Below are positions 1,440 through 60,530 of a DNA stretch of 64,000 nucleotides, one piece after another. The number at the start of each line of letters is the position of its first letter. The stretch's first letter is position 1. The stretch comes from Anas platyrhynchos (lineage: Eukaryota; Chordata; Aves; Anseriformes; Anatidae), in assembly GCF_047663525.1 (NCBI RefSeq), contig NC_092590.1, positions 5,290,001-5,354,000 on the forward strand, written 5' to 3'. A program made the translations under genes and the position numbers. The notes beneath the pieces were generated by a model. It did no database searches, was not told the DNA's origin, and was given only the letters and a program-made list of their open reading frames with translations.

Positions 1440-1716
1440 ACACCCCCAGAGGGACCACCGGAATGTATCAGAGGGACTGATATGCATGTGCCAGTGGGAG
1501 GGTTTGGATTCCAGGAACTAATTATAATAACCCTGCCTTTTCTAGAAGTAGTAATGAATATGTATTAGCCTAGGAGCATAAAAACCAGCCACCTGATGTA
1601 ACGTGTGTGTGTGTTGGAGAAGCCCAGACTCTCCATGCACCCAGCACCATTTACTTGCCTTTTATTGACCCCATAAATAAATCTTATAAAGCTAAATTGA
1701 CTCGGAATTTATAACA
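1440..1716 (+). mobile_element. LTR-retrotransposon terminus (solo or fragment)
   Basis: The 3' part shares the order CACCCAGC, TTTACTTGCCTTTTAT and terminal TTTATAACA with the two LTR copies at 58.2 and 61.5 kb. There is a TATA-like CATAAAAACC near 1578 and a polyadenylation signal AATAAA near 1675. The 5' limit is uncertain; similarity is clear only from about 1600. Confidence 0.6.
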
Positions 1717-2177
1717 ATAGAAAAACAAACAAACAAACAAAACACAACACCTGAAATCCCTCCTGTCTCTGAATAAAGGCATATTGATCAGATGCAGTCA
1801 CCACCATAAAGCATATAAGTAAAGAAGCATTCAGGTAGAAACACACCTAAAACCTAGCTGGAGAAATCCCAGTTCTCTACAACCCCTAAGGATGCCTGAA
1901 TGCACCAGACCCTGTACTCACCACTTTGCTGACACTAAGCAGCAAGCACAATTGATTGATCAGAGGAAAAATAAAAAGACTGTGATTGAACTTCCAAAAG
2001 GTAAAAGTACTTATACCTGTCCTGGTTAAATACTCACAGTACACATTCTTCACCTTTCAAAGGCTTCCAAAACACTGTATGTGAAGGGTTCTCAGGAGAC
2101 TCTCTTACAGCACTGTCCTACTCAGCATGGGGTTTCTCAATGATTCTTCCACCAATGATTCTGGAAGCAGGTAGCTG
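1717..2177. other. Intergenic DNA, nothing recognised
   Basis: A short AAAC/AAC-rich stretch at 1722-1750, otherwise unremarkable sequence between the LTR end and the next CR1. Confidence 0.5.
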
Positions 2178-2880
2178 AAAATGAGTGGTTGGAGAGCTGC
2201 CTGGCAGAGAAGAACCTGGGAGTATTGGTTGATAGTCAGCTGAATATGAGCCAGCAGTGTGCTCAGGTGGCCAAGAAGGCCAACGGCATCCTGGCTTGTA
2301 TAAGAAACAGTGTGACCAGCAGGGCTAGGGAAGTGATCGTCCCCCTGGACTCGGCTCTGGTGAGGCCGAACCTCGAGTACTGTGTTCAGTTTTGGGCCCC
2401 TCGCTACAAGAAGGACATCGAGGTGCTTGAGCGGGTCCAGAGAAGGGTGACGAAGCTGGTGAGGGGCCTGGAGAACACGTCCTACGAGGAGCGGCTGAAG
2501 GAGCTGGGCTTGTTCAGCCTGGAGAAAAGGAGGCTCAGGGGCGACCTTATTGCTCTCTACAGGTACCTTAAAGGAGGCTGTAGCGAGGTGGGGGTTGGCC
2601 TGTTCTCCCACATGCCTGGTGACAGGACGAAGGGGAATGGGCTTAAGTTGCGCCAGGGGAGTTTTAGGTTGGATGTTAGGAAGAACTTCTTTACCAAAAG
2701 GGTTGTTAGACATTGGAACGGGCTGCCCAGGGAGGTGGTGGAGTCACCATTCCTGGAGGTCTTTAAAAGACGTTTAGATGTAGAGCTTAGGGATATGGTT
2801 TAGTGGGGACTGTTAGTGTTAGGTCAGAGGTTGGACTCGATCTTGAGGTCTCTTCCAACCTAGAAATTCTGTGATTCTGT
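2178..2880 (+). mobile_element. 5'-truncated CR1 LINE
   Basis: Carries the last about 200 codons of CR1 ORF2 (open from 2189 to TAG at 2801-2803), the 3'UTR with GGTCAGAGGTTGGACTCGAT, and terminal ATTCTGTG octamers. It closely resembles 20388-21078, so both are young copies of one subfamily. It has a 4-base deletion in the 3'UTR relative to that copy. Confidence 0.95.
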
Positions 2881-3438
2881 AAATATTAATTTGGAGAAGT
2901 TTTAGCATCTTCCCCATCTCAGTAGCACATATTAAGCAAGGAGTGTTGCCTACATATTCATTCTTAGTCCATCGCTCTCTAATTTCTAATCCCATGTTTC
3001 ACAACGAGGAGCAGCCCAACGATCAAGCGCAGCAAGGACCTGGGCCGGCACCCCGGAGCCCATGTGGCCGCCTGGCACCGCAGAACTACAGCTCCCAGCA
3101 CGCCTCGGGACGGAGCAGCCCACCTGACCCTGCGGGGACTCTGGAGCACCCCCCCCCACCGTGGCCCTCCCCTCCTCTGCTCGCTCTGCACTACGGCAGC
3201 TTCCAACGTCCCATCCTGCCCATGCTGTCTCTCTCCAGGTGCCCACACAGGTTCCGAGGGAGCCTTCAGACCGCCTCCCTGGTAAGGCAGCTTGTGCTGA
3301 CGGGCCTGCTTCAGTGCCCCGCATCTCTTGCTGGGGGAGCAAGCTCTCCTTTTCTGAGAAGAACTTGCTTCTTCTTCCCAAACTGAACCTTCCCTGGCAA
3401 GGCCTGACAACCACCACCATAAGAGAACAGATGTTTTA
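2881..3438. other. GC-rich 3' flank of the ADCY10 copy
   Basis: From about 2990 to the stop codon the sequence is GC-rich and contiguous with the gene, but I find no further ADCY10 coding similarity and no AATAAA on the minus strand close to the stop. It contains one copy (3256-3339) of an 84-bp duplicated segment. The 3' end of the transcript is not located. Confidence 0.5.
3256..3339 (-). repeat. 84-bp direct duplication, copy A (3' flank)
   Basis: Nearly identical to 4919-5002, with about six substitutions and no gap. On the minus strand it begins with an acceptor-like CCCCCAG|CAAGAG. It lies just beyond the stop codon of the cyclase gene. Confidence 0.85.
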
Positions 3439-3652
3439 CTAAGACACACTGAGAAAAGCAGGGATGGAAAGGTAGTTGTCGGGGTGGAAGCCTTCTTCCT
3501 TTAAGGAGTCTATTCTCCTGTCCACGTTGGCTTTCATGCGAGCTGCCAGGCGGGACAAGCTCTGTCGTCCTGATGTGTCCTCCAGGCTGTAGAGGTGCCC
3601 CAGTGAGGAGAGGCAGCGGGTCTGCTGAAGCATCCAGGCTACCTTCTTCCTC
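3439..3652 (-). CDS. ADCY10: ADCY10 exon 25, terminal exon (residues 1180-1250)
   Basis: Begins RRKKVAWMLQQTRCLSSLGH then LYS, like mammalian KKRLAQLYRQTVCLSLLWRIYS. It becomes unlike mammals after about residue 1228 and ends LSIPAFLSVS then TAG (3439-3441). The tail could be intron read-through at a lost donor, making this a terminal exon created by truncation. Acceptor TGGCAG|GAGGAA, phase 2. Confidence 0.82.
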
Positions 3653-6600
3653 CTGCCACACAAGAGAAACTGCTGAGCCCAGAGGCGCGGCTGTAGAGCA
3701 CCAAACCAGACTGGGCAGGGGAAAGTGGGGTGGCAGCTGAGACACGTACACCTCCTCAGAGGAAGGGAGCTGGTGCTGAAAGGGCTGCCAGCATGGAAGT
3801 GGGCAAACGAAGAAGTGCTGCCAGGGGCAGCCAACCGCTACAGAGGGTGTGTTGGCACTACAGCACCGGGGGGGAAGTGATGCCAGGCACCAGCAGGAGA
3901 AGGACTATCGCAACTCTGAGCCTTCTCCTCATCACGCCCTCCCTCCCCCCGCCAACCTTAACCCAACCCCATCCCGTCCCTTGAGGTCACTGCCTTCCTT
4001 CCCCTGTTAAGCCCGTCCTCGCTGTTCACATCTCTCTGTTCCCAGCCACCCCGGCCTCATCCGAAACGTGCCAGCAGGTACATCCCTCGGCACAAGCTGC
4101 TTTCTATGCAAAGGCCCAGGGGCTGCCCAGGGGGGCAGCGTGAGGCTGCACTGGCCCCTGTTTGACCCACACGTCGTGCCTTAATGCCTCGGTCCTGCTA
4201 ATGAGCTATGGGACAGCTTAGGCGTGGCCTGAAGTCCAGGCAGGCCTGGGCCTGAATGCCTGGCACCAGAATACTCTTCCTTTCCCACCAGAATACTCTT
4301 CCTTTCCCACGCTCTCCCTTCTGCTGCTTACCGAGCCTCTAGCGGAAGTGAGGGTGTTCTGTTTGTGTCACAAAGAGCACGCTGAAACCTTTCCCACAGA
4401 GACGTGACAAAGGCTCCGGAGCATGTCTGAGGGAATGGCTTTTTCAGAAGGCTCAGCGCCTGCCTGGTCATTTTCCTGGCCAGCCCCACGCATCCTAGGA
4501 TACAGCAGACCTGCACAGGAAGAGGAAGCCATGCAGACATGGACCGCTTTCCCAAGCCTCTCCTCCTGCAGAGGCTGCAGAAACGTACAAGGGGCTGGCC
4601 ATAGCAGGGACACCCCCTGCAAGAAGGGCATCACCCTGCCGCTTTACCTCCGCTTTGAGGCTTAAGAAGGTCGCCTTCTCAAAGCAGTCTAACACAGTTG
4701 CTGTCTTCCGCATGGAGTTCCTCAGGACCTCTGCTTCTCTGAGCTTCATAAGGGCCTTTGAGCAAGCACACAGGCAGCAGGTGAGCATCGGTGCAGAGCC
4801 CCCAGCTAGCTCCACCCTTCCCTCTTGCCTCCTGTGGCACCTGCCTTAGGAGGGCCCGCATCTCCCCATGTGATCCCTGCCCTAGCACAGTGCCCCGTGG
4901 GCTCAGAGCTCAGGCACCAAGGGAGCCTTCAGACTGCCTCCCAGGTAACGCAGCTTGTGCTGACGGGCCTGCTTCAGTGCCCCGCGTCTCTTGCTGTGGG
5001 AGAGGCAAAGCGCAGGAAACAGTCCGGCTCTGCCCCCACTGTTTCTTTTGGGAGGCCCCTCAGCGAGCATGTCCTGTTGCAGTGGACTCCAGGTGCAGTG
5101 CGTGCTGGCAAGCAGGGTCACTCACCATGTAGCTGTTGGAGACGTGCAGGTAGGCAGCCGCACACTCCAGCAGGTAGTAGAAGGCTCGGGAAGCATTGCC
5201 TGTTGCCACATAGTGGCGAGCCAAAGGCACAAGCACTGATTCAATGATGGCTTCGCATTCGCAGGAACACTTGTCACCGTCCAGGGTGCTGACCAAGAGA
5301 GCAAAGAGCAGATGAGCATCACCTGAGATGACCCTGCTCTCCCTACGGGTAGCAACAAAACCCTATTTCCTGCTGTCTCATCCCAGCTCCCACCCCACAG
5401 CCAGCCTCCTCCTCCCAAAGCTGGAGTCCCAGCCAGCAGCCAAATGGCAGAGCTCCATCTGTCTCCCCTGGAGCTCGCTCGTTTCCACAATCATCAGAAC
5501 CTTGTCTCCTCACCTGAACTCCTCCTTCGAGAAAGCCTGCTGCGGCTGCAGGGCATTTGCACTACCTGGGAAGAAGAGAGCGTGTCAAGGGACTCCCCAC
5601 GTAGCCCGGGCTAAGAGCTGCAGGCTTGCAAGGGTCCTGCCGAGCAGACCCAGGGCACAAGAGCTGCGGTGATCGTCCTCGTCCCCTGGCTTATCCCTGG
5701 TGCTGGGGACCTGGTGGGCCCCAGCCTGCATGGGCCTGGGCTTCCAGAAGGAGGGGGCTCCGCAGCAGGGCACACAGCCTACCTTCAGGGATGTGAGTCC
5801 TGTCCTTCTTCAGCTGTTCTCCAGCGAGCACCAAGGCCTCCCAGCTGTGCCAGTCATCCTCGTCAGCAGAGCCCTGGCAGTTTTCCCCGTCCTGGGGACT
5901 GGGGACGGCGAAGCGGTGGAAGGCCACAAAGTCCCCTCCGTGGCAGCGCCGGCATTTGTGCGCGTGCTTCTCCAGGAAGGCAGCACACTTGCGCTGTGTG
6001 CTGGCCCTCTGTCTCTTGGGCCACAGCTCGTAGGCTGCCTCCTGCAGCAGTGGGGCACAGAAGGCCAGAACGCCAGCCTGCTGCTCCGTGGTCTCCTTGC
6101 TTGTAGACGGCCTCTCCACCCCTGCAAGGCAATGGATGGTGGCCTCAGCCAGAGTGGTAGAGACATTCCCAACAGCCGCTGGGAATTTCCCTCTGCACAA
6201 AGCTGGTGGGGGAAGGCCTCCTTCAGCTACAGCGCTCCTGGGTCTACCTTACTGCCACCACTTACCGCTCCCTGCCTGCTGAGAGGTGGACGGCCCCTCT
6301 CGAGCATCTTGGATGTCTCTGGGCACCCCTGTGTCCTTCAGCCACTTAAGGATGTTGTCGCTCACCAGCCCATCCAACAAACTATTCATGTGCTGCCTGG
6401 TACAAGTGGGAAGGATGTGAGCCAGCAGCTGGGTGGTAAACACTGGCCCTATGATGGCTGCAAACTTCAAAACCATCTGCTTCTGCAGCGTGATCCGGTC
6501 CAGCTCAGCCAGTGCAATCTCTGTCAAGAAGAAGCAAAACGTCTCTCTCTTTTGTGTCCTGGAGCCTGAGCTTGGAGAGGCTGGACAGTTCCACCACAGG

Positions 6601-9600
6601 AAACAGGGTAGACTTTGGCCTCTCTTCCTCAAGATGGCACCTGCTGGGCAATTGGAGTCCAGGGGAATGTCTTCAAGATGGCTCCTCTCCTCTTGCAACC
6701 ACAGGCAACAAGGCCCAGGGATAAGAGCTCCTCCACCAAGGATGGGGAGGGTACGATCCTGCGGGTACATGCGACCCGTGATGCGACCTACCAGAGCTGA
6801 ACTAGGCTGACGCCCAGCAGTGCACACAGAGAGCAGAGAGCGCTTTCAGCACCTCAGAGCTGGACTTGGAGCTCCCCACAACTGCTGTGGGCCTCACAGC
6901 CCGGAGGGGGACATCTGTGCCCTTAAGCGCAGGGCTCTGTCTGCTCAGACCAGAGTCGCCTTCCTGGCAGGGCCCCCCAGGCTGAGAGGGTGCTTCTGCA
7001 GCATGCCGATGCCCATCCCCTCTCTCACGTGCACCCCAGGAAAGGACCCCAGCACAGCCGCAAACTCAGCCCCTCACCTTTCAAGGTGGCCGGCAGCACG
7101 GTGGTCTCCAGGCTGACGTCTGCTCTGATGGTGCAGACCCTGCCACTGTTATTCCCAGCACTGGAGCTTGAGGTGGCTGAGACAACGAGTGAAGCCTCAA
7201 CTGCAGAAGCTGGGAAGAGAGAGAGAGAGCATGAACAAGGTGGGGCAAGTCCAACCTGTCACGGTTGGGTGCACTTCATGGCCCGCACCGAATGCGGTCA
7301 GTGAGCAGGGCAAACCGGTTTCCACTGCAATGGTTTTGTCTGCATTGCCCTTGCAACTCTTTTTCTGCCTTCGGACCTGCTGCCCAGCTGTACTGACTGA
7401 ATATCCCGCAACAGAACACAGCGGTTGCTACCTTTGACAGCGCTCCCTCCCACAGCCAGGGAAATTGCCAGTGATAATCCAAAAGGCAAAGCCCATGCAG
7501 GCTGTCCCCAGGGCAACAGCACTCTGCTTGGCATTGCTCTTACAATTACTGCTCTTGCGTTACTGCCAAGCTCCTCAGTTCCCAGCGCCTTTGCGGGCAT
7601 TTCTGGTTTTGGATTACACTTTCCCAGGTCTGACCCTCTCCTGCAGAAGGGCTTTCTTCTCGAGGGAGCTGGTGGCTTGCCAAGGTGACGGCAAGGTGTG
7701 CAGGAGCCCACACCTCAGCCAGATCAAGTTCTGTCCTGCTGCCAGATCGGACTCTGCCCAGAGTCACTGGAAAGCCACAGGACACGGTCATGTGTGTGTG
7801 TGTGTGGGGGGGGGGGGTGACGTGCAACAGCATCTAGCCAGTCCGCAACAAGAGTGCTTACCGATCAAGCCCTCCCAGTTGTCCTCCACTTTTTTGTCCT
7901 GCCTCCCAGTGCTGAACAAGAGCACGTTGTCGCGACGCAGGCAGTGCAGCAGTTCCTCACAGTAATATGGGATGCCAGAGCTTCTTTGGATCAGGAACCT
8001 GGGCAGGAGCAGACCCAGCAGTGACCAACACCAGGGAAGTATGGTGCAACACAGTTCTGATGGGCGAGTGGCGAGTCACTCAGGCCTCACAGGGTAACCA
8101 GCCTCTTTGTCACAGCTACGGCTCACTTCAGAAGGGGGCGGTCCTCCCACTGGCTTGGGCGTTTGGGACCCCTGACCCTACACTGTTTGCTGGAGTCTGT
8201 GGGGAAATGGTCGTGGGCAATGTCCAAAGCACAACACAGCAAGCCTGATCTTCCCTGTCCTCAGGAGCCCAGATCTGCTCTGGCAGCTGGCTGGACCCCC
8301 TGCTCCTGGGAATCCCTACTGCAGCCTGGCTACATTGGTCAAAGCCTTTTTGACCCACGCTGAGGCTTGGGTACCCATCTCCCTCTGCTCTCCTCTCTCC
8401 TCTTCTCTCCCTTTTCCTCCCTGCCTTGCCCTCCCTCCTCTGCAACAGCAAAGGGCTGTCACTGCCCACGTGCTGCGTCCTGGGAGCTGCCTATTCTTAG
8501 CTCACACCTGCTGTGGTGGTTCTTAAGGAGAAACCCAGGTCCTTGCTGGAGTCAAGGATGCTGCCAGAAGGCCCCGTGCTTCCTTTCCTGCGGGGCGACT
8601 TCCTTCCGTGGCAGCATAGGTCCAAGCCCTCCGGAAGAGCTCCGTGGCCTGCAACATACCTTGCTAGATCCCTGGGGATGCTGACCACTCCAAGGTCCTG
8701 GCAGACTTTCTGCACCACAGCTGCAGGTTTCAGCTCTTCCAGATGAAGACAGCTGATTCTCTGGGACGTTGTGCTGTCTGCTGCAGCTTTGAAAAAGCTC
8801 TCCGTTCTCTCGTGGCCAGGAGCTAAGCTCATCACCATAAAGAGCGTGACGCTTTGGAGCACGGGCCACATGACAGTCCAGGAGGCAGGGTCGATGAAGT
8901 GGGCGTTGTCGATGACAAATATGCCAAATTCTCCTCCAAGGGTCTGAAAAAAGCAGATGGTTCTGCGTGGAGTCTGGCGGATTCTCAAGCATCCTCTAGG
9001 GGAGGAGATGTAGCCTCTCTCCGGAGACGGAGAATACTCAGAAGTCTCTCCCCAGCCGCTTCCCTCTTCAGAAGCTTACTGGCTTTTCATTTCTGCAAGA
9101 CTTTAAGGCCTCCTCGAACATCACTTCCCCTTCTGAAGAAGGGAGCTTGGGCAAAGGAATGCAGAAGGCGTCAATCCTCCTCCAGGGCACATAGCCTCCA
9201 ACTTAACAGGAGGCGAGCTACGACGAGGCATATGGGGAGGGCGTGAGAGGGGCTTCTGGGAGGAGGGGCTCCTGGGCCCTGAAGGGCGGTGACCCTGGCA
9301 CATCGTCCTGCTGCCCACTCAGGCTGTTCTGATGTGGAGCCTGCAGCGGGCAGGGTTGTTTTCTTTCCCTGACCCAGGTAGAAGGAGGAACGCTCACCTT
9401 CTGTAGCACTTCCCTGCAAGTCTTCTGCAACTCCCCTTTCATTTGAAGGTCATGCATCTGGCGAACCTCGTCTGAGATGGCAAACTGGACAGGAAAGCAG
9501 AGTCAGAAAGAAACATCATCCTGGGACCAGGCATGCCTATCCACCAAGCTAGACGGCAGAGCAAAGCGCCTCTGCTTTTGCATGAGGTCAGCGCAAGCCT

Positions 9601-12600
9601 CTCTTCACTGGCCTTTCCAGGGTGCTGACCAAGAAACCTGGCACATGCACAGGACATGAAGTCACCACAGACAAGGAGCCTCCCTGGACCCAGGAATCAG
9701 AACGGGGTGCTATGAGCACTGCAACTCCCAGCCCAGCAGAACACCCAAACAACCACCAGACTACCTCAGGAGGCCTCCCTCTCGCTCTCACCTTGACGAG
9801 GAAAATGTTGTTGAGGAGGCAGTATCTGCTCTCTGCTATCACCCCTTGGAGCTTGGCCTGCAGGGTGCGCTGCCAGTCCTCGCACGTTTCACCTGCCTGC
9901 AGTCCCAGGGCCCTGGCCACCAGCATACGGATGGCAGAGAAGGGCTGCCTCATGTGGGCCTCGGTCAGTTCCATGGTGACAACCCTGCGGTGCAAAAGCA
10001 AAAGGTACTTGAGCTGCAGAAAAGGCCCCCAGTAGCCCACGCCTGCCAAGACAGGAGAGTTAGAGACGCACGCTGCCTGGTTCTTACTGCAAAGGAACGC
10101 AGGGTGCACAGTCCCGGGGGTGGGGGCGGAGGGCCAGGCACAGGGCAGAGGCATCGCAGTCTTCCACGAACGTCAGGGGACGGGCATGGGAAGGGTCTCA
10201 AAAAACCCACTTACCTGTGCCCAGCGGCCTGGCCCAGAAAGGCCAGCTCAGTAAGTAAGCGGCTCTTTCCAGAGCCCAGAATGCCTGCGTACGCCAGGAT
10301 GCGCGGCTGTCCCAAAGTCTCGTAGGCCTTCAAGCTGCGTTCAAAGAGGTCAATCTCCACCTCCCGACCTGTGAAGACCAACCAGGAAACAAGCTGTTGC
10401 AGCATGCTGAAAAGCAGGGCAGCATTCCCTTTTGCTGGCACGGCGGCTTCCCTCCACCACGTCAGTAAGCCTGCCTACACCCAGGCCTCCTTCCAAGCCC
10501 CTCATCTCAGCTTTGGCACCACTGCCTTCCTTAGAGCTCTAACAGAGCCGCCTGCCCACTGGCCACACGGCGCAGCTTGTAGGAGCTCTTTCCCCTCCGC
10601 TTCTCCTCCCACAGGCAACGAGATTCAGCCAGCTGGACGCAGCTCCCCACACTGATCCAGCCCAAGACTGGAGGGCACACTTGGAGACACTGCAGGCAGC
10701 TGCGCCCAAAAGGCATGCCAAACATCTCACTGCACCCTGAGCCCCAGAGCTCTTGCCGGCACCCTGTAGCTAAGGTGGTGTCTTCGGGCCTGTTGTGGTT
10801 TTGGCTGCGATACAGCTCCTTGTCTTCACAGGAGCTTGGAGTGTGCTGTGATGTGGTGGACTTGCCACCAAAGGAACGCCGAGAACACACTGAACTCTTG
10901 CCGAGCAGTGCTGGCACAGTGTCAAGGCCTCTGCAGTTTCTCATGCTGCCCCACTAGCCAGCAGGCTAGAGGAGGGAGGAAGGGAGGGAGGGGGCTGTGT
11001 GGGGCTCAGCTGCCTACCAGGGTTAACCTCCAGCAAGGCGCACCGCTTTGGGCAAAGGGAAGCAGCTGGGGTTCTGAAGAGCGAGGACTTCTCTACCTAC
11101 CCAGCAAGGGGCGACGGTCCGACCTCCTCTTGGTACGATCCGTGTCAAAGATGCTAGAAGCGGGAGAAGACAAAACATGAGTTTCACTTAGTTGGTCAGA
11201 AGCCAGGGGATATAGAGCCTGCTGTGTTAGGGGAGGAGACCCTCCGCAGGTAACTGCTTTTCTTTCCAGCAGCATGCTGTCCGGAGCATGCTCCCCGGCC
11301 AACATTCCAGTGGACATGCCAGGACAGCTTCAAGCACAAAGAAGGCCAGCAGCCATGGCGGGACAGCAGAAGGTGTTGGGAGTCCCTCGCCAGAGGCCAA
11401 AACCAAAGAAAGCCCAGATGGGGCAAAGAAGCCAGGGTGTGCTGTTGGCTAGGTAGACTGCTTTGCCACCCTGGACAAGCAAAAGAAGCCTCTTGGAAAG
11501 GAGGACCTGTGTCACTTAGTGGCTCAGGACAACAAGCACCTGGCACCTTTGGCTCAAGTCTTTTGGTAGTTTTCAAGAGACAGCAACGTTAACATCCAAA
11601 AGGTCCTCCAACCCTGGCCCGGAGGGACAGCTGAGAACTGAGCAGGCAGACAGGAGGAAGAGTGGCCCAGTGGCCCACCTTTCCCCAAGGTGACATGACT
11701 GACCCAAAGCTTCCTGCGCAGAAGGAGCTGGGAAAAAAATCCTCCTTGCATCAGAATGACCTCTGCCTTAGCCTTGCACATAGTGAAGCAAACACAGGGC
11801 AGGGAGCCCAGCGGAAAGCCGCTTGGAAAAAGCCTGCATGGCTAGCGTGCGTCTCCAAAGCCAGGACAACCTTCCACACCCCACTGGCGTCACTCGCAGC
11901 TCTCTTAGCAGCAGGAGACACAAGGGCAGAAGGGCACAAAGCAGACCCATGCCAGGCCTTTGGATCTTCTTGGCCACAGGGAAGGGATTTCTGTGGGAGG
12001 CCAGGCTGGTCTCTTGCTGCACAGCTCCTCTTTACCAGTCAAGGTTGCACCCTTGGCTTCCCTTGTGGCCCCATCCAGATGGCTTGGAAGACACTCACCA
12101 CTTGTTGGTGATCCCCACATATTGATAGACAGGGCTGGGATCTGTAACACCTTTCAACTCTTTCTTCGGCAACTCCTTGAAGAAGTAACTGGGCAGCCGA
12201 GAAGCCTTGTAGGTGTCTTCATCACAGGACACCAGCCTGGGGTAGTGCACCATCAAGCGGGCACCCAAATTCACCTTATGGCCAATCACTGCCATGGAGA
12301 GAGAACACATTGACATGGTTAGGAAAGCAGCCTTGCCCCACCCTTCAAGGCCAAGGGCTACTTCCCCTTGTTGTCCATAGGTGCATGCCTAGTGCACTGC
12401 ACCAATGAGCACACAGAGCGAAGATCTTTTAATTAAGTAATTCATTATATAAATATATATATATATTATATAATAAAATAATTTATTATATAACTCTGCA
12501 GAGTCAGGTGCTTGGTGATCTTCCGCAAAGCCAGCACACCTCTGACTTGAATCACTGTTACTTATACACAGCAAACTTGTGAAAGTTATCTCTTTGGGTA

Positions 12601-15600
12601 CTTTTGATTGGCTATTACAGCTCACCTAACTTATGTCTCCTGAGTTTGCACATTACAGAGAAAGAGTGGGGGCTGGGGAAGCAGGGACACACCAAATCCC
12701 ACATTAGCATACGTTAGCATTTTGATGGGTACGATTTTTAATACGTTTACGACCCTTAATGAGCAAAAGGTTACTACAGATTAGTCTGGAGCTGTTGTTC
12801 TCCTCCTTGTTTTCACCTTTTGTCCCTTATCTCCCTTGCTCCTGCTAGCTCAAGGCTACCTGTCTCTCTGTTCCCATATTCTCTCACCTAAAAGACTATA
12901 CAAGCTATAGAAATACTACACAAGCTACAGGCCTCTCTATATTCTTCAAGGTTTCCTTGTTTTTTTTTCCCAGCTTTGGGACTACACCCTCAGGCACAGG
13001 TCAACCCCGCAGCAGGGCAAGCGGACCCAGCGGGAACCGCAAGTCTCTGAGGCCATTCTCCCACCTCAGGTGGAGACCCGTGACATCTGGGCCGCTCTCG
13101 GCAGGCTGTAGCATATGTGCTTGCCCCAGCCTTCCCATCTCTTCATGACTGACATGCTTAAGCACACCCACGCCAGCCTCCCACTCTTCAGACTAAGGTG
13201 CGGTACCTGTATGTTCAGCCCTCTCCGGATGGCCACAGAGGCCGCAGAACATCGTCCCGGTGGTGACCCCAATAGACATTGCCCTGGCACACAGGGAGAG
13301 AAGCGCAAATTCAGTGGTGCCCCAGGCGCAGTCCTGCTCGCCCCGCTCTGCCACTTCCCACGTCTCCCCTTGGCACCAACCAGGGGGACCACAGCCGGTG
13401 CATGCCTTGGGGACTTGGAGAGCTCGGGGCACCACACAGCCCACCCACAAGGGACGTGGGGAGGGTGCACGCAAGATGGCTTGGACCCTTCCCCTGAGGC
13501 CCAATGGCTGCGACCTGCAGCAGGCCACAGCCCCTCTCACTAGTGGAGGAAAGCAGGTGCTACCCATAGAGCACCTACAATGCCAGCGACTTTGAGATTA
13601 GGCCCGAGCCCTGTTCCTGGCAGGCTCTGCTTGGAGGGACTGCGCCTGGCTGCCGTGAGCTAAGCCCAGGGGCCACGTGCTGCTTCTCAGGGTGCTGCCT
13701 CAGTCCTGCCAGGGACAAAGGAGGCCAAGCCAGGAGGCCACGTCTCTTGCTGGTCAGCCCCCTTGCGCTGTCCCAGGCAGCACGCATGCCCTGCAACACC
13801 GCCACACACTCACTCAAGATTCCTCAACGATGTGGAGCACGTGCTGAAGATCTGAAGAGCGCTGTCCAAGGCATGGGTGCTCTCGTGATGCAGCTTTGCT
13901 CCAGACATTCCGAACACACAGAGGAATGTGCAGCCCTGCAGAGGACAGATGCAACACATCTGGTTACAGTGCCTATGGCCAGCAGCTAATGCCGTTCCAT
14001 TGCAGTTGCCAGGGAGACCAGTACAGCTGCAGGTCAACACAAAGCCACAGAGGACTGATCCCACCAGCAAGGCAGAGCTGCTCCTCAGTCCCTCTCCACT
14101 AAACAGACACAGGCCACCCTCGGGGGGTGGGATTGCTCCCCCACGCTCACCTTATCAAACAGAAGGCTTTTGTTGATTTCGCCCTTGTGAGGACTGATGA
14201 TTGTTGAAATCATCCTGGTGGCATCACAGAGGCCCCTCTGAAGATCCATTGTGTTGGCATTTTCAGAAAACTGCAGCTGGATAAAGAGGCTGGTGACTGG
14301 CCGTAGCTCAGACCACAGGTGCAGCGGCATATCCACGTCCAGCTGGAAGTGAAGAGCACGACAGCTTTGCCAGCCTGTTCTCCCGGCGGTTCCTCTGGGC
14401 CCGTGCCACGTACCAAGGGAGATCAGGCATGTTGGCAATACCAGGTACTACTGGAGGAAGGGTAAGTCCTCTGCTCGGTGCCAATCGCAGGCCAGCCTGC
14501 GGCAGGCAGGTCATAGCAGAGTCATAGCACAAACGACAGAGGGGAATGTTCCAGCAACACTCCATCTTGTGGCAAGTACGGATGCGAGGGGCGACCCTCT
14601 GGCACGTCCCAGGGACTTGAGCAGAGTCATGGAAAAGACAGAGGCAAGTCCACCTCCCGCCACCCGTGCCTCTTTGAGGAGCAGCACAAAATGGGCAGAT
14701 GCCTGGCACATGCGGCACCACTAAGCCTGGCATCAGGTCCCCTGGGTTCCCGCCCCAGGGTGCTTTTTCTTCCATTTGTCTGTTTTCACGAGAGCTCCAC
14801 CCATGCAACGCACACCTTCTTCTGCCCTCCCAAAATGAAGCCTCCAGCAGCAGTGGCCTTACCTTCCTGAGAGCAGCTTCTGGTATGTACTTCTGCATCT
14901 TTGCTGCCGCTTTAGGATCATTGGACACGTGAAAAGGTGGCCTTTGGTGCCCTAAGGGAAGCAAATGCAGGCCTTCACTGGCAGGATGGGACTAGAAGGG
15001 GGTTGAAAGACGGGGCTGGCACTGGGCAAAGCAGAGCAAAGATTCTTTGGCGTTTCCTCCTGCTCCCCTCTGCAGCTGCTTGGCCAGAGCCGTGCCCTGG
15101 AAGGAGGGGATGGCAGCGACAGCCTCAGCTGAAGCACAGGAGGGACAAAGGCACGAACGCTGACTGAAAGGTGGAAGAGGGCAGGGGGAGTTCCTCCCTG
15201 GAACTCTGAAGCAGGCAGGCCCCATTTTTCCAGCCAGTCTCAGAACATGGTGAAGCAGGGACTCACTTAGCCTTTCCAAACGCCGCATCTTCGTGTGTTG
15301 GTCAAACTGGCCTGCAGCATCTTCGCGTTCTGATCCAGACATGTGCTCCGTCCTCTGAACCTGCAGACACGCAGAACAAAAGTACTGCCACTGGCCTCCC
15401 CAAGGAGCCCCGGGAGACACAGCCTGCCCCTCCACTCTCACTTTCCAGAGAAGGGCAGAACCTCTTGGTGCAGCAAGCCCACCTCTCTGGCTTTTCAGCT
15501 GGGACAGAAGTGCCTCCTCAGAAGGACCAAAGCCACGCAGGCATCACCCAAGCATGCCCCAGCTCTCCAGGACAGCTGCGCGACCCACGGGGAACATTGC

Positions 15601-18058
15601 TGGTGGGGCCCACACCCTTCCTGTGCTTCCCTCGGCCAGTCACACCAAGCAAGCACTACCCAGAGCTACCCCTGAGGTGGAAGGGCAACTGCTTCAGCTC
15701 TCTACCAACCCTTACAGCTACAACTCTCTCCACATCCAGCGCCTCAGCCTTCTAGCACCTGCCTCCTTCCCTCTCAGGTGCGGGTCTTCAGAGAGGCTCT
15801 AGAGGCCAACCCGTCTACCTACCTTCAGAACCCGTTTGCGACCAAAAAGCCTGGTCTGGATCTGTTCCTGCTCACACAGCTCCCAGCAGGTGGGCGAGAC
15901 AATCACTTCACTTTTAACCGCAAGGTTTTGGGCCATCATAACTTCATCCAGGGCGTTGCTGCAGATGAAGTACTGCTGATGGTACCTGTCTCCAGCAGAC
16001 AGTATGGTCATTTTCCCTGCGGAGATCCCTGGGGAGAGAGCAAGAAGCAGCATTGACACCGGGGAGCAGCAGCAGTCAGCAGCACTGGAGAGTGCCAGGG
16101 CTGTGCACGTGGCACAGCTGACCCTGCAGCGCCCATACCTATCTTCAGGTGGAGCTTCTGACCCAAATGCGTGTCACGACTGCCATGCTTCTTCTGGATT
16201 TGTTGGCAACACTGCAGCACCAGGCTGATGGTCTGAGGCAGCTGAGCTTCTGATGCTCTCCACACCACCAGCACAGCATCCCCTGGGGAAAGTGAGGGGA
16301 AGGGGAAGGCTCTCCTGAGGGACAGCAGCAAGTGGCCAGCTGGCGTGCAGAGGAAGACGGGCTTGTGGGAGGGCATCCTCCTGAAGGACAGCACCCTGGC
16401 CACAGGGACCCCTCCTCTCTGCCAGACCAGCCACAGCACCAGCCAGGGCAGCAGGGGAAGAGGGTGGGTGGCGGGGGGACCCTCTGCCCAGCACTCCTCC
16501 GCAGCTGCAGCAGCCCAGGGACACCACCAGAGGGATTGCTGCGTGGCCAGAGAGCTGCTCCATCAGGCCAGAGCACAGAGCAAGCGGCTCCCGCGGGAAA
16601 CACTGCACAGCAGCAGGACATGGAAGCAGCCTCCTCCTAAGGACATACCTCCAAACTTCAGGATGTCTCCTCCAAAATCCAGCACAACTGTGGAGAAAGA
16701 AGGGAAGGCAGAGTTATGGGGCGCCTTCTTCCGGAATCCGTGGGGCAAGCCACCTGTAGCCACAGCCCTGGCCCCTGTACAGTGAGTTGGGAGGCCACAC
16801 AAGCACAGTACAGTGCAAGCTGGAAGGCACCTCTGGAGAGTATCTGCTCCGGTCCCGCACCCCGTCTCCACTCAAGCCGAGCCACTCAGAGCCACCTGCC
16901 CGGGGCCACGTCCAGATGCCTGGTGAAGATCTCTGAGCGGGGACACTTGCAAATGCTGCCAAAGTGGTGGCCACCACATGCTCACGGTCAGAGACATCCC
17001 CCAGGATAAGGGGCTCAGGAGGGCCACCAAGTGGGTCACCTTGTCATAGGAGATCAGGGTAGTCAGGAGGCACCTAGCCTTCAAAATCCCACGCCAGCTG
17101 CTTCTGATCCCTCCATTGGAGGCATGTGCCATGTCACAGCACTCAGGATCACCTGCTCCGTAACCTGCCCTGATACTGACATCAGACTGACGGGCCTGTA
17201 ATTCCCTGGAAAGTCCTTCCAGCCCTTCCTGTTGCCTGGAGGCACGTCTGCCAGCCTGCAGTCCACTGGGGCCTCCCTCATCACAATGGGCAGCAGAAGA
17301 GACCTGCTGCGCTCCTCCCTTGCCACGGGAGCCCCACGGCTCCCACTGTCCCCCCAGGCCACAGTGAGCTCCACAGCCCTTCCAAGGAGGCTGGAGCAGG
17401 TGGTGCAGCAAGGCTGCCTCTGCCCTCCGCAAGCAACCTCAGGGCCCGATACACAACAGCCTGGCAGCATGGCTCTTACCCTCCAAAAAGTCGCTCATGT
17501 AGTCATTGAGTATTTGTGCCAGCTCGTCAGCACCTCTGTCTGTGCCGCTCTGCTGGACACACTTCTGTGACAAAGCAGTATAACCTGCAGGAAGAACAGG
17601 CAGAAATCAGGACATGTCTACGTGGGCCACAGGGCCTGGCAGCCAGTCCCGTGCTGCCAAGCCTAAGCGCCTGTCAGTCGCTGCATCGCAAGAGAAGCCA
17701 ATCCGTGCTCTCTTTAGCCATCACAGCAGGAGTCCGCAACAGCGACAAGATAGCTGTGCCATCTACGGGCCAGGGCCCCTGAGGGCCTGGTGTGTCCCAA
17801 TGGTTAGAGGTTGGACTCGATGATCTTGAGGTCTCTTCCAACCTAGAAATTCTGTGATTCTGTGTGATTCTGTTTCCGGGGAGGCTCTACCGTGCCCAAC
17901 CCACCTGAAACATCTGCTAAGAACAGCACTCCCATGATCGTCTTGGGGATCAGGTTCTCCCAGGCGAAGTTCTCAGAAAGAAGGAGATCGGGGAGGAGGA
18001 GCACGCTCCTTTGCCCCATCTCAGAGTACGGGCACTCCCGCTCCCAGGCAGATGCCAT
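3439..18058 (-). CDS. ADCY10: Soluble adenylyl cyclase (adenylate cyclase type 10), 25 exons, C-terminally short
   Basis: Makes cAMP from ATP; the mammalian enzyme is a bicarbonate- and calcium-responsive cytosolic cyclase. Joined exons in transcript order: 18058-17905, 17584-17480, 16687-16649, 16282-16139, 16028-15823, 15360-15267, 14951-14863, 14342-14151, 13935-13814, 13283-13207, 12288-12099, 11153-11101, 10368-10215, 9984-9792, 9484-9398, 8943-8660, 7998-7862, 7200-7078, 6520-6266, 6121-5783, 5565-5514, 5288-5126, 4755-4648, 4510-4332, 3652-3439. They total 3753 nt, 1250 aa plus stop. All introns are GT-AG and all phases agree, with no frameshift or internal stop. Domains: C1 cyclase about 40-216, C2 about 285-455, P-loop NTPase about 488-770, helical repeat-like region 815-1230. 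The mammalian protein is about 1610 aa, so the last roughly 360 residues are absent; nothing in 1-3438 resembles them. An in-frame upstream ATG at 18197-18199 would add 47 residues; I chose 18058 because it puts D49 at the spacing of human D47. A functional paralogue or a recently truncated copy are both possible. Confidence 0.92.
4265..4308 (+). repeat. 22-bp unit tandemly duplicated
   Basis: Two perfect head-to-tail copies of a unit beginning ACCAGAATACTCTTCC, just 3' of exon 24 in the last intron. Confidence 0.9.
4332..4510 (-). CDS. ADCY10: ADCY10 exon 24 (residues 1121-1179)
   Basis: Starts VCCILGCVGLARKMTRQALS then LLKKPFP, aligned with mammalian VCFNMGQIVLAKKMLRKALKLLNRIFP. Acceptor GTGCAG|GTCTGC, donor CTCG|GTAAGC, phase 0 to 2. 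The C-terminal half diverges from mammals. Confidence 0.9.
4648..4755 (-). CDS. ADCY10: ADCY10 exon 23 (residues 1085-1120)
   Basis: Reads ALMKLREAEVLRNSMRKTAT then VLDCFEKATFLSLKAE, matching the mammalian segment around FESATFYSLKGEV. Acceptor TCAAAG|GCCCTT, donor GAG|GTAAAG, phase 0 to 0. Confidence 0.92.
4919..5002 (-). repeat. 84-bp direct duplication, copy B (intron 22)
   Basis: The partner of 3256-3339, inside the intron between exons 22 and 23. On the minus strand it begins CCCACAG|CAAGAG. Phases of exons 22 and 23 join without it, so it is not needed as an exon. Confidence 0.85.
5126..5288 (-). CDS. ADCY10: ADCY10 exon 22 (residues 1030-1084)
   Basis: Reads CSCECEAIIESVLVPLARHY then VATGNASRAFYYLLECAAAYL, matching mammalian CQCEEILEIVILPLAHHFLALGEND and KALYYFLEIASAYL. 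Acceptor GGTCAG|CACCCT, donor ATG|GTGAGT, phase 2 to 0. Confidence 0.93.
5514..5565 (-). CDS. ADCY10: ADCY10 exon 21 (residues 1013-1029, 52 nt)
   Basis: A short exon reading SANALQPQQAFSKEEF, with acceptor TCCCAG|GTAGTG and donor TCAG|GTGAGG, phase 1 to 2. Little similarity can be seen; it is accepted because it restores the phase between exons 20 and 22. Confidence 0.7.
5783..6121 (-). CDS. ADCY10: ADCY10 exon 20 (residues 900-1012)
   Basis: The longest exon. Contains FCAPLLQEAAYELWPKRQRA and KCAAFLEKHAHKCRRCHGGD, then FVAFHRF. The Cys/His cluster matches mammalian KCARFLEEDAHRCDHCRGRDF, so a possible metal-binding knuckle is conserved. Acceptor TTGCAG|GGGTGG, donor GAAG|GTAGGC, phase 1 to 1. 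Confidence 0.93.
6266..6520 (-). CDS. ADCY10: ADCY10 exon 19 (residues 815-899)
   Basis: Reads EIALAELDRITLQKQMVLKF then AAIIGPVFTTQLLAHILPTC, closely matching mammalian ISLIQLDSMRLSHQMLVRCAA and IIGLTFTTELLFEILP. Acceptor TGACAG|AGATTG, donor AGCG|GTAAGT, phase 1 to 1. Confidence 0.93.
7078..7200 (-). CDS. ADCY10: ADCY10 exon 18 (residues 774-814)
   Basis: A low-conservation, Ser/Thr-rich exon containing GRVCTIRADVSLETTVLPAT, placed where mammals have the CHLTSGVRLKNLSPPTSLK segment. Acceptor CTGCAG|TTGAGG, donor AAAG|GTGAGG, phase 1 to 1. Splice sites and phase support it more than the sequence does. Confidence 0.8.
7790..7818 (+). repeat. (TG)n followed by a G homopolymer
   Basis: A run of alternating TG leading into about 13 consecutive G residues, in intron 17 close to exon 17. 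Confidence 0.9.
7862..7998 (-). CDS. ADCY10: ADCY10 exon 17 (residues 728-773)
   Basis: Reads FLIQRSSGIPYYCEELLHCL then RRDNVLLFSTGRQDK, matching the mammalian GIPFYCEELLKNLEHHEVLVF. Acceptor GCCCAG|GTTCCT, donor ATCG|GTAAGC, phase 2 to 1. A GT/G microsatellite lies just downstream in the intron. Confidence 0.93.
8660..8943 (-). CDS. ADCY10: ADCY10 exon 16 (residues 634-727, Walker B region)
   Basis: Contains FGIFVIDNAHFIDPASW, aligned with the mammalian IIFIIDEAQFVDSTSW, then FMVMSLAPGHE. The Walker B hydrophobic run and D645 are kept, but the following acidic residue is Asn646. Acceptor TTTCAG|ACCCTT, donor CAAG|GTATGT, phase 0 to 2. Confidence 0.93.
9398..9484 (-). CDS. ADCY10: ADCY10 exon 15 (residues 605-633)
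   Basis: Reads FAISDEVRQMHDLQMKGELQ then KTCREVLQK, matching the mammalian FPISREISRMSTLKKQ region. Acceptor GTCCAG|TTTGCC, donor AAG|GTGAGC, phase 0 to 0. Confidence 0.9.
9792..9984 (-). CDS. ADCY10: ADCY10 exon 14 (residues 540-604)
   Basis: Reads RQPFSAIRMLVARALGL and later YCLLNNIFLVK, aligning with the mammalian HQTFYTIQMFMANVLGL and YCLLNDIFHVQ. Acceptor CCGCAG|GGTTGT, donor AAG|GTGAGA, phase 2 to 0. Confidence 0.92.
10215..10368 (-). CDS. ADCY10: ADCY10 exon 13 (residues 489-539, Walker A)
   Basis: Begins GREVEIDLFERSLKAYE. It carries a full P-loop, GILGSGKS, at residues 517-524, followed by RLLTELAFLGQAAGH. Acceptor CTTCACAG|GTCGGG, donor CAG|GTAAGT, phase 1 to 2. Confidence 0.93.
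11101..11153 (-). CDS. ADCY10: ADCY10 exon 12 (residues 471-488, 53 nt)
   Basis: A short exon reading IFDTDRTKRRSDRRPLLG. The PLLGR junction with the next exon aligns with the mammalian YPLLGRNKEI entry to the NTPase domain. Acceptor TTCTAG|CATCTT, donor CTGG|GTAGGT, phase 2 to 1. Confidence 0.85.
12099..12288 (-). CDS. ADCY10: ADCY10 exon 11 (residues 408-470, end of C2)
   Basis: Reads VIGHKVNLGARLMVHYPRLV and later YFFKELPKKELKGVTD and PSPVYQYVG. N414 and R418 match human N412 and R416, the transition-state pair. Acceptor GGCAG|TGATTG, donor AGTG|GTGAGT, phase 1 to 2. Confidence 0.94.
12415..12960. other. AT-rich block inside the GC-rich gene (intron 10)
   Basis: Between exons 11 and 10 the base composition switches sharply to AT-rich, including a TA-rich tract (12437-12492), and then returns to GC-rich at about 12.96 kb. 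The contrast suggests an inserted element, possibly a solo LTR, but I could not identify its ends or a target-site duplication. Confidence 0.4.
13207..13283 (-). CDS. ADCY10: ADCY10 exon 10 (residues 382-407, C2)
   Basis: Reads AMSIGVTTGTMFCGLCGHPE then RAEHT. T407 corresponds to human T405, which helps recognise the adenine base. Acceptor TGCCAG|GGCAAT, donor ACAG|GTACCG, phase 2 to 1. Confidence 0.9.
13814..13935 (-). CDS. ADCY10: ADCY10 exon 9 (residues 342-381, C2)
   Basis: Reads GCTFLCVFGMSGAKLHHEST then HALDSALQIFSTCS, a close match to the mammalian GCSFLCVFGFPGEK segment. Acceptor CTGCAG|GGCTGC, donor TTGA|GTGAGT, phase 0 to 2. Confidence 0.93.
14151..14342 (-). CDS. ADCY10: ADCY10 exon 8 (residues 278-341, start of C2)
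   Basis: Contains WSELRPVTSLFIQLQFSEN and GEINKSLLFDK, matching the start of the C2 domain (mammalian LSELRPVTIVFVNL and GQINKVFMFDK). K335 aligns with human K334, a phosphate-contacting lysine. Acceptor TTCCAG|CTGGAC, donor AAG|GTGAGC, phase 0 to 0. Confidence 0.93.
14863..14951 (-). CDS. ADCY10: ADCY10 exon 7 (residues 248-277, linker)
   Basis: Reads RPPFHVSNDPKAAAKMQKYI then PEAALRK, aligning with the mammalian linker segment ending in LQKYVMESILKQ. Acceptor CCTTAG|GGCACC, donor AAG|GTAAGG, phase 1 to 0. Confidence 0.85.
15267..15360 (-). CDS. ADCY10: ADCY10 exon 6 (residues 217-247, C1-C2 linker)
   Basis: Acceptor CTGCAG|GTTCAG, donor CTAA|GTGAGT, phase 0 to 1. The sequence is rich in charged residues (EREDAAGQFDQHTKMRRLER) and poorly conserved against mammals, as expected for the linker. 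It is assigned by position, clean splice sites and phase fit. Confidence 0.75.
15823..16028 (-). CDS. ADCY10: ADCY10 exon 5 (residues 148-216, end of C1)
   Basis: Reads GISAGKMTILSAGDRYHQQ, then FICSNALDEVMMAQNLAVK, then SEVIVSPTCWELCEQ. The segment NALDEVMMAQN aligns with the mammalian QAVDDVRLAQN, so the bicarbonate-binding Arg (human R176) is Met178 here. Donor AAG|GTAGGT, phase out 0. Confidence 0.92.
16139..16282 (-). CDS. ADCY10: ADCY10 exon 4 (residues 100-147)
   Basis: Starts GDAVLVVWRA; D101 corresponds to the second catalytic metal ligand, human D99. It ends LHLKIG, with K146 at the place of human K144. Acceptor CCCCAG|GGGATG, donor ATAG|GTATGG, phase 1 to 1. Confidence 0.92.
16649..16687 (-). 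CDS. ADCY10: ADCY10 exon 3 (residues 87-99, 39 nt)
   Basis: A 13-codon microexon reading VVLDFGGDILKFGG across its ends, with acceptor CCACAG|TTGTGC and donor GGAG|GTATGT. K97 corresponds to human K95, which contacts the adenine and bicarbonate region. Phase 1 to 1. Confidence 0.9.
17040..17285 (-). mobile_element. Degenerate CR1 LINE fragment in ADCY10 intron 2
   Basis: On the minus strand the translation contains [17 protein letters not shown] and TEQVIL, the conserved reverse-transcriptase motif of CR1 ([20 protein letters not shown] in the copy near 19.7 kb). A further CR1-like YDKVTHLV lies downstream. It is old and frameshifted, and oriented with the host gene. Confidence 0.75.
17480..17584 (-). 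CDS. ADCY10: ADCY10 exon 2 (residues 52-86)
   Basis: Acceptor CTGCAG|GTTATA, donor GAGG|GTAAGA, phase 1 to 1. Completes the C1 motif as SGYTALSQ and continues with DRGADELAQILNDYMSDFLE, which aligns with the mammalian segment containing DRGAEQLVEILN. Intron 1 (17585-17904) holds a CR1 3' end. Confidence 0.9.
17803..17873 (+). mobile_element. CR1 LINE 3' end in ADCY10 intron 1
   Basis: A short 3'-terminal fragment starting GTTAGAGGTTGGACTCGATG and ending in ATTCTGTG-type octamer repeats. It is the same subfamily as the copies ending at 2880, 21078 and 60511, inserted antisense to the gene. Confidence 0.9.
17905..18058 (-). CDS. ADCY10: ADCY10 exon 1 (residues 1-51, start of C1 domain)
   Basis: Begins ATG GCA TCT with a strong initiation context (GACCATGG). 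It ends in the first half of the C1 metal-binding motif GVLFLADVS, where D49 matches human D47. The donor is CAG|GTGGGT and the phase out is 1. The frame stays open upstream to another ATG at 18197-18199, also in good context, so the true start is uncertain. Confidence 0.88.
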
Positions 18059-18310
18059 GGTCAGTGCCCTGTGGTACCGGGGTACCTCAGCAGAAGACAA
18101 CCATGCCCAGCTGGGAGGGAGGAGATGAAGACCCCTCAGCACCGGACGGTGCAGTGAGCCTGGGGCCTTCTTGAAGGACAGTTTGGTCTCTGCCCCCATG
18201 GGTCATCACAATCACCTGGTTGTGATGTCATTCATAGGTCATCGCTTATTGGCTGCCCTCCAGCAACACGGTGGGCTAACCGTGCCATCCTCCATAGATC
18301 AATGCCTGCT
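18059..18310 (-). promoter_or_regulatory. Putative 5'UTR and proximal promoter of the ADCY10 copy
   Basis: GC-rich sequence directly upstream of the start codon, ending where the DNA turns AT-rich at about 18.34 kb. On the gene's strand there is a CRE-like octamer TGACATCA (18223-18230) and a CCAAT box (18248-18252). An in-frame upstream ATG lies at 18197-18199. No TATA box is evident. The transcription start is not determinable here. Confidence 0.35.
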
Positions 18311-60511: not shown

Positions 60512-60530
60512 TCAGGAGACTCCATGCAGT

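What the first reader, a model, noticed from the sequence alone, without database searches (positions are those of the whole stretch)
3439..18058. Intact but C-terminally shortened ADCY10 copy in a compact GC-rich island
Seen: 25 exons in 14.6 kb join into one 1250-codon frame with all GT-AG introns and consistent phases. Established: mammalian ADCY10 is about 1610 residues, and a short isoform made of little more than the two cyclase domains is active. Inference: loss of the last roughly 360 residues together with an otherwise undamaged frame points to a retained functional paralogue or a recent duplication, rather than an old pseudogene. Its placement in a gene desert suggests it moved or was copied there.
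Basis: partly seen in the sequence, partly recalled or inferred. Interest (0 to 1): 0.8.

Follow-up and report, generated by a model that had tools for sequence, protein, structure and literature searches.

The report
Shortened sperm-type cyclase gene in birds
A duck-family genome carries an intact gene for soluble adenylyl cyclase, the enzyme that makes cAMP in mammalian sperm; its missing last quarter is an old feature seen across modern birds outside the ostrich-kiwi-tinamou group, not a sign of a recent copy, and one residue needed for bicarbonate sensing is lost.

Summary
Window 18058-3439 (minus strand) contains 25 exons, all GT-AG and in phase, joining into one 1253-residue frame. It is ADCY10 (soluble adenylyl cyclase, sAC) of a duck-family bird.

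Of 59 neognath records, 42 reach the last shared exon and none carries the region beyond; 11 of 21 palaeognath and 60 of 61 other records do. A search with the kiwi C-terminus gave 58 proteins, none neognath. The gene tree puts the window among ducks. So this is the neognath ADCY10 lineage, most simply shortened once in its ancestor.

Catalytic residues are kept. Bicarbonate residue R176 is M here; it is R in 59/59 non-bird, 0/19 palaeognath and 13/44 neognath rows. Walker-B E645 is N in all 79 bird rows with a residue. Most likely role, inferred: a working, re-regulated cAMP source in sperm. Print says duck sAC is a pseudogene, or that nearly all birds lack sAC (PMC6660944, PMC12867704). Copy number and expression here were not testable.

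The parts
17905..18058 (-). exon 1, modelled start codon (alternative in-frame ATG at 18199); MASAWER start shared with several Neoaves records; metal residue D49 (human D47)
17480..17584 (-). exon 2 (C1 domain)
16649..16687 (-). exon 3 (C1; K97 = human K95)
16139..16282 (-). exon 4 (C1; D101 = human D99)
15823..16028 (-). exon 5 (C1; M178 = human R176, bicarbonate residue replaced)
15267..15360 (-). exon 6 (linker)
14863..14951 (-). exon 7 (linker)
14151..14342 (-). exon 8 (C2; K335 = human K334, D340 = human D339)
13814..13935 (-). exon 9 (C2)
13207..13283 (-). exon 10 (C2; T407 = human T405)
12099..12288 (-). exon 11 (C2; N414 and R418 = human N412 and R416)
11101..11153 (-). exon 12 (short)
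10215..10368 (-). exon 13 (Walker A GILGSGKS)
9792..9984 (-). exon 14 (P-loop NTPase region)
9398..9484 (-). exon 15
8660..8943 (-). exon 16 (Walker B FVIDN; human E645 is N here)
7862..7998 (-). exon 17
7078..7209 (-). exon 18
6266..6520 (-). exon 19
5783..6121 (-). exon 20
5514..5565 (-). exon 21; relatives have 24-26 more residues between this and exon 22
5126..5288 (-). exon 22
4648..4755 (-). exon 23
4332..4510 (-). exon 24
3439..3652 (-). exon 25 with stop; homology to full-length ADCY10 ends near human 1240, then a short tail
2181..2882 (+). truncated LINE copy (CR1-type by recall) at the 3' side of the gene, direct repeat of 20383-21079
   Evidence: 94-96% over two 300-nt blocks
19806..20996 (+). 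LINE reverse transcriptase ORF (PF00078) at the 5' side of the gene

Best explanation
This is the ADCY10 (soluble adenylyl cyclase) gene of a duck-family bird, a member of the neognath ADCY10 lineage. It encodes C1-C2 catalytic domains, a P-loop NTPase domain and part of the C-terminal repeat region, and stops near human residue 1240. Shown: gene structure, homology, kept catalytic residues, truncation shared across neognath records, R176 replaced by M, E645N in the bird rows. Inferred: the truncation arose once, in the neognath ancestor, when the frame ran past the point where the full-length protein continues and met a stop soon after; the protein makes cAMP, most likely in sperm; bicarbonate no longer switches it in the mammalian way; as in sea urchin sAC, which also keeps K95 and lacks R176, pH or another cue may control it; and the NTPase domain may bind but not hydrolyse nucleotide.
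For: Gene model. PDB sAC match over residues 20-470; Pfam PF00211 twice. D47, K95, D99, K334, D339, T405, N412, R416 all kept in the window. C-terminus present in 0/59 neognath, 11/21 palaeognath, 60/61 other records; of rows that reach 1199-1237, 0/42, 11/17 and 59/60. Region search with kiwi residues 1300-1670: 58 hits, 14 palaeognath, 0 neognath. Tree of 51 rows: neognaths one clade (SH-aLRT 100), window with Anas (99), then Aythya and Anser (100). Position 176: R 59/59 other, 0/19 palaeognath (18 W, 1 L), 13/44 neognath. Position 645: N 58/58 neognath and 21/21 palaeognath, E 57/61 other. Since the Anser split, about 182 residue changes predict 8.5-9.1 nonsense changes if neutral; none seen, P about 1-2e-4. 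K95/R176 bind bicarbonate in human sAC, and sea urchin sAC without R176 is pH-driven (PMC12867704, passages). In chicken sperm the sAC inhibitor KH7 and the tmAC inhibitor MDL lowered PKA-substrate phosphorylation (PMC7660528, passages).
Against: No RNA or protein evidence from this species. The gene evolves fast: distance from the sauropsid node 1.08, against 0.30 in crocodiles and turtles. Constraint in Anatidae is weak: differences from Anser at conserved versus variable columns 51/370 versus 188/845 (odds ratio 1.79), and from Anas P0002 not significant, p 0.077. Since the Anas split only about 2.3 nonsense changes are expected, P(0) about 0.1, so a recent death is not excluded. One in-frame linker segment is lost. 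Thirteen of 44 neognath rows (6 species) have R at 176, so loss of the bicarbonate pair is not general in neognaths. K95 is K in 33 of 36 and D47 is D in 20 of 26 neognath rows. The neognath records are predictions, several per species, and 17 of 59 do not reach the last shared exon. KH7 was one of two cyclase inhibitors with an effect, so the cyclase in chicken sperm is not pinned to this gene. Pfam AAA_16 scores 26.9, under its cut-off of 32.6.
Confidence: 0.68

Rival explanations
1. It is a recent extra copy: a local or transposed duplicate of another ADCY10 in the same genome. Not exclusive of the best explanation.
For: Other birds hold several loci: Mycteria 7 gene ids, Harpia records on 4 contigs, Phalacrocorax on 2, Rhea many on one 4.29 Mb contig. 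Two mallard records differ (792 of 830 alike). Direct LINE repeats of 94-96% flank the gene. ADCY10 is among expanded families in the Asian king vulture (PMC11043450, passage).
Against: The truncation is not recent; the tree places the window among ducks, where a single local gene would fall. No second copy in the window.
Confidence: 0.2
2. A young or dying pseudogene whose frame happens still to be open.
For: Fast evolution, weak constraint, lost linker segment, mallard models that skip exons. PMC6660944 marks the duck as having a pseudogene.
Against: 24 good splice pairs, no stop or shift in 1253 codons, catalytic residues kept; retention of conserved columns (0.748) close to goose (0.761) and above the annotated mallard rows (0.705, 0.712); neutral expectation since Anser about 9 stops.
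Confidence: 0.1
3. The protein is full length; 3' exons lie beyond base 1 of the window or were missed.
For: Only 3.4 kb of 3' flank is in the window; none of nine poly-A signal variants lies within 1.7 kb of the stop.
Against: Introns here are at most 945 bp; no tail hits in the window; no neognath record found has the region.
Confidence: 0.05
4. The neognath protein is no longer an enzyme but a scaffold or decoy.
For: Conserved-column retention falls from 0.835-0.872 in palaeognath to 0.614-0.832 in neognath rows; R176 often lost, Walker-B E645N, C-terminus lost; D47 not D in 6 of 26 rows (gene-model errors not excluded).
Against: D99 34 of 35, K334 48 of 48, D339 47 of 47, N412 51 of 51, R416 51 of 51 neognath rows with a residue; inhibitor effects in chicken sperm.
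Confidence: 0.08

Closest known systems
Mammalian ADCY10 / sACfl (1610 aa)
   Same: C1-C2 cyclase domains with the same catalytic residues, P-loop domain, domain order; 443 of 1218 aligned residues identical (human sequence recalled)
   Different: lacks about 370 C-terminal residues; R176 is M; Walker-B E645 is N; gene packed into 14.6 kb
Mammalian sACt (C1-C2 only, from exon-12 skipping; PMC12802110, passages)
   Same: a naturally shortened, active sAC
   Different: sACt ends just after C2 (53 kDa); here the NTPase domain and part of the repeat region remain, and the shortening is in the gene
Sea urchin sAC (PMC12867704, passages)
   Same: K95 kept, R176 replaced by a neutral residue
   Different: sea urchin has N at 176 and only the full-length form; its pH control is measured, the bird's is not
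Palaeognath 'adenylate cyclase type 10-like' (kiwi, rhea, emu)
   Same: bird branch; R176 lost (W), E645N
   Different: C-terminus retained
Neognath 'adenylate cyclase type 10-like' database records (Anser, Anas, Aythya, Gallus, Gymnogyps and others)
   Same: same gene lineage, same truncation point
   Different: several annotated models skip or misplace exons (for example Anas P0002 at exon 24 and Anser P0001 at exon 1); the window gives a complete 25-exon frame

Membership tests
soluble adenylyl cyclase (ADCY10) | two class III cyclase domains C1 and C2 | tested here: met
   PF00211 in two stretches; human sAC structures aligned over 20-470
soluble adenylyl cyclase (ADCY10) | catalytic metal and substrate residues | tested here: met
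   D47, D99, K334, D339, T405, N412, R416 conserved in the window; residue roles partly recalled
soluble adenylyl cyclase (ADCY10) | P-loop NTPase domain after C2 (criterion of PMC6660944) | tested here: met
   Walker A GILGSGKS aligned to sAC relatives, several of which carry PF13191; the window's own Pfam AAA_16 score is 26.9, below its cut-off of 32.6
soluble adenylyl cyclase (ADCY10) | no transmembrane segments | not tested
   no predictor was run
soluble adenylyl cyclase (ADCY10) | phylogenetic place within amniote ADCY10 | tested here: met
   tree of 51 rows, window inside the bird clade, supports 99-100
mammalian-type, bicarbonate-switched full-length sAC | bicarbonate pair K95 and R176 | tested here: not met
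   K95 kept, R176 is M
mammalian-type, bicarbonate-switched full-length sAC | C-terminal region to about residue 1610 | tested here: not met
   stop after human ~1240; no further exons found
mammalian-type, bicarbonate-switched full-length sAC | activation by bicarbonate and calcium | not testable with these tools
   needs an enzyme assay
processed or decayed pseudogene | introns lost, or stops and frameshifts | tested here: not met
   24 introns, no stop or shift

The most novel reading that the evidence does not exclude
Neognath birds run a re-engineered soluble cyclase: shortened once in their common ancestor, with the bicarbonate switch residue lost already on the bird stem (and regained or kept in a few lines) and the NTPase glutamate replaced on that stem. 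Their sperm cAMP would then be set by pH or another cue rather than by bicarbonate, in step with the loss of CatSper and sNHE; the gene has since changed about two to three and a half times as much as in other sauropsids and multiplied in several orders.
Probability: 0.35. Interest if true: 0.75.

Novelty: new variant of a known kind. Interest (0 to 1): 0.5.

Why it matters
sAC is the essential cAMP source of mammalian sperm. Print holds that nearly all birds lack it (PMC12867704) or that the duck gene is a pseudogene (PMC6660944). An intact 25-exon frame in the duck family, and records from 38 neognath species (31 of them with a row that reaches the last shared exon, none going on), argue otherwise. 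The loss of R176 in many birds, of E645 in the bird rows and of the C-terminus in neognaths makes a direct test possible: does bird sAC still answer to bicarbonate, and what controls sperm cAMP in animals without CatSper and sNHE?

Tried and rejected
A first ab initio gene model gave 44 exons with spurious small ones; it was replaced by a homology-guided model (still had wrong borders for exons 23-25, put right). An idea that the last residues match the human C-terminal exon (an internal deletion) was dropped after the relatives' tails were lined up. Copy number: the genome search 'own' did not complete. Z-linkage: Anser, Anas, Aythya and Gallus records lie on contigs of 85-86 Mb; that 86,044,486 is chicken Z in GRCg7b is recall, and so is a role of ADCY10 in the chicken Z amplicon; searches for ADCY10 with Z chromosome and chicken, or with Z-linked, found no paper, two wider ones listed none on the point, and the 2010 Z paper is not held. 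dN/dS was not possible: no relative's nucleotide sequence was reachable. No structure job was run: the spliced protein is not a contiguous translation of the window. The palaeognath figures near 1.0 are circular (those columns were chosen partly on palaeognaths); only the other column set is cited. The counts rest on one MAFFT alignment each. No row was dropped before the counts (59 + 21 + 61 = 141); 50 of the 120 homologues then held, plus the window, were used in the tree, chosen by me for length and taxon spread. Groups neognath, palaeognath and other were set by hand from the species names; order names are recalled.

Full report
Observation. On the minus strand of the window 18058-3439, 25 exons with GT-AG borders and consistent phases join into 3762 nt: 1253 residues and one stop. 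The exons align with relatives in register, weakly in exons 1, 6 and 7 and hardly at all in exon 21. tblastn with the kiwi protein finds 19 pieces at E <= 1e-3, all between 18225 and 3526; the reversed island, 1-3000 and 21201-64000 give none at E <= 1. One kiwi piece lies upstream of the modelled start, and an in-frame ATG at 18199 would add 47 residues resembling quail and kiwi records, so the true start is open.

Identity. Residues 20-470 match human sAC structures at E about 1e-109. Of 526 homologues found, 120 listed, the nearest are Anser cygnoides (1265 aa, 80%), Anas platyrhynchos (92% over 78%) and Aythya fuligula (88% over 74%). In a 51-row tree (quick search, SH-aLRT only) the window is sister to the two mallard rows (99), then Aythya, then Anser (100); Galliformes follow; neognaths form one clade (100), palaeognaths another (100), with crocodiles, turtles and squamates outside. 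Some forks inside Neoaves are unresolved. The gene is thus the ADCY10 of a duck-family bird, not a separate old paralogue. Because several birds have many records (Mycteria, Harpia, Phalacrocorax, Rhea) a second copy in this genome is possible; nine requests to the own genome did not complete.

The short C-terminus. Homology to full-length proteins ends near human 1240, after ...SRLAARMKAN; non-neognath proteins go on with ..MKVNTAEESEDASH.. (palaeognaths) or ..VNSAEESED.. (crocodile, turtle). Of 59 neognath records (38 species by the names given), 42 reach the last shared exon and none carries as much as 200 of the 300 residues 1260-1559; among 21 palaeognath records 17 reach it and 11 carry the region; among 61 others 60 and 60, 59 of them both. 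In 38 neognath records the LA..MKAN motif is found; 37 of them end 1-36 residues later and one (P0007) runs on for 113 residues of other make-up. Two rows (Anas P0002, Melopsittacus P0047) end in a different frame, which I take for annotation errors. Among palaeognath rows that lack the region, P0054 and P0100 run past the point into the ancestral continuation and P0056 ends just before it; the rest were not looked at one by one. A search with kiwi residues 1300-1670 gave 58 proteins: 14 palaeognath, 43 reptile, one caecilian, no neognath. That search did not reach mammals, so its reach is limited, and it sees only proteins of 0.55-1.75 times 1749 residues. In the window itself no tail exon was found. 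The loss is therefore old and shared; a single origin is the simplest reading. A search with the condor C-terminal part gave 72 proteins, 51 of them neognath and none named as a passerine, nor is any passerine among the 120 of 526 listed; loss in passerines is a guess, not a test.

Working parts. The window keeps D47, K95, D99, K334, D339, T405, N412 and R416 (human numbers). The Walker A motif is intact. R176, which with K95 holds bicarbonate in human sAC (PMC12867704, passages and section 5 read), is M. It is R in 59 of 59 non-bird rows with a residue, W in 18 and L in 1 of 19 palaeognath rows, and R in 13 of 44 neognath rows (Harpia, Alca, Chroicocephalus, Larus, Rhynochetos, Nyctibius grandis), otherwise C 19, M 3, I 3, S 2 and four single others. 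E645 of Walker B is N in 58 of 58 neognath and 21 of 21 palaeognath rows with a residue, and E in 57 of 61 others. The same paper reports that sea urchin sAC, with K95 but N for R176, is driven by pH and not by bicarbonate. The window's enzyme is of the same K/non-R kind, so pH or some other control is the natural inference; nothing here measures it. Half of the non-bird rows (29 of 58) have N for K95, so an incomplete pair is not special to birds, as that paper also says for non-mammals.

Is it alive? For: intact frame; about 182 residue changes since the Anser split would bring 8.5-9.1 nonsense changes if neutral, none seen, P 1-2e-4; differences from Anser are rarer at conserved columns (51/370) than at variable ones (188/845), p 5.5e-4, likewise from Aythya (15/259, 78/644), p 0.005, condor (odds ratio 3.0) and chicken (3.1). 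Against: the same test against Anas P0002 gives p 0.077; constraint within ducks and geese looks weaker than in a Neoaves pair (condor-buzzard 22/372 and 169/853, odds ratio 3.9); since the Anas split only about 2.3 nonsense changes are expected; and a 24-26 residue linker segment present in Anser, Anas and Aythya is missing. Mean distance from the sauropsid node is 0.30 in crocodiles and turtles, 0.55 in squamates, 0.80 in palaeognaths, 1.06 in neognaths, and 1.08 for the window. So the gene is fast but not visibly broken. In 312 columns conserved outside birds the window keeps 0.748, goose 0.761, annotated mallard 0.705-0.712, palaeognaths 0.835-0.872.

Literature. PMC6660944 (passages and section 14 read): some birds keep full or truncated sAC, none sNHE, CatSper is kept in two palaeognaths only; turkey, duck and pigeon are marked as having a pseudogene. 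PMC12867704: all but a few birds lack sAC. PMC7660528 (passages): in chicken sperm KH7 (sAC) and MDL (tmAC) inhibitors lowered PKA-substrate phosphorylation. PMC10668734 (passages): ADCY10 transcripts high in Yili goose liver and nearly absent in hybrids. PMC11371425 (passages): ADCY10 among outlier loci between penguins. PMC12192435 (passages): a chicken gene ADCY10L1. PMC11043450 (passage): ADCY10 in expanded families of a vulture. PMC12802110 (passages): sACt is about 3-fold more active than full-length. Ten paper searches listed no title or abstract start that describes a truncation shared by neognaths or the R176/E645 pattern in birds; only open-licence papers are held, and only the passages named here were read. 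'Truncated isoforms' in birds are already in PMC6660944.

Setting. The gene is compact (introns at most 945 bp) and GC-rich to about the same degree in introns and exons; the 43 kb beyond are at 0.366 GC. Of the 15 ORFs of 90 aa or more listed there, the nine sent to Pfam had no match; one further has LINE-like sequence and five were not tested. No Rfam or tRNA match in the window (the tRNA scan used the bacterial code). Two LINE copies, 94-96% alike and in direct orientation, flank the gene 18.2 kb apart; recombination between them could duplicate or delete the gene (inference). How the island came to be GC-rich is open.

Verdict. Confirmed observation, re-read: an intact duck-family ADCY10 of an old short form shared by neognath birds, with altered regulatory residues. 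New variant of a known kind.

Noticed in passing
window 58256-61461: Large imperfect palindrome: six pairs of inverted arms (69-173 nt, 82-91% complementary) centred near 59.9 kb. Nature unknown.
   Followed up: no
window 3248-3339 and 4911-5002: A 92-nt stretch of the intron between exons 22 and 23 recurs at 91% just 3' of the stop codon, a small internal duplication.
   Followed up: no
window 3084-3100: AACTACAGCTCCCAGCA in a GC-rich stretch beyond the gene's 3' end resembles a promoter motif (ZNF143 type, recalled); a second transcript could start here.
   Followed up: no
window 18058-18199: In-frame ATG and a stretch resembling quail and kiwi records upstream of the modelled start: a longer N-terminus, or a conserved leader.
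   Followed up: partly
records P0030-P0032, P0036, P0038, P0040 (Rhea pennata, one 4.29 Mb contig): Many ADCY10-like records on one contig, several joined in prediction to domains PF21047/PF23227: perhaps a tandem array beside another repeated gene.
   Followed up: no
records P0002 and P0004 (Anas platyrhynchos): Two mallard records differ at 38 of 830 aligned residues, in part where one model leaves the frame; two copies or two strains.
   Followed up: partly
position 176 in Harpia, Alca, Chroicocephalus, Larus, Rhynochetos, Nyctibius grandis: These neognaths show R at 176: kept, or regained from W/C; at least 5 R/non-R changes on the 51-row tree.
   Followed up: partly
non-bird rows, position 95: 29 of 58 non-bird rows have N for K95, mostly turtles, crocodiles and geckos, while keeping R176.
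   Followed up: no
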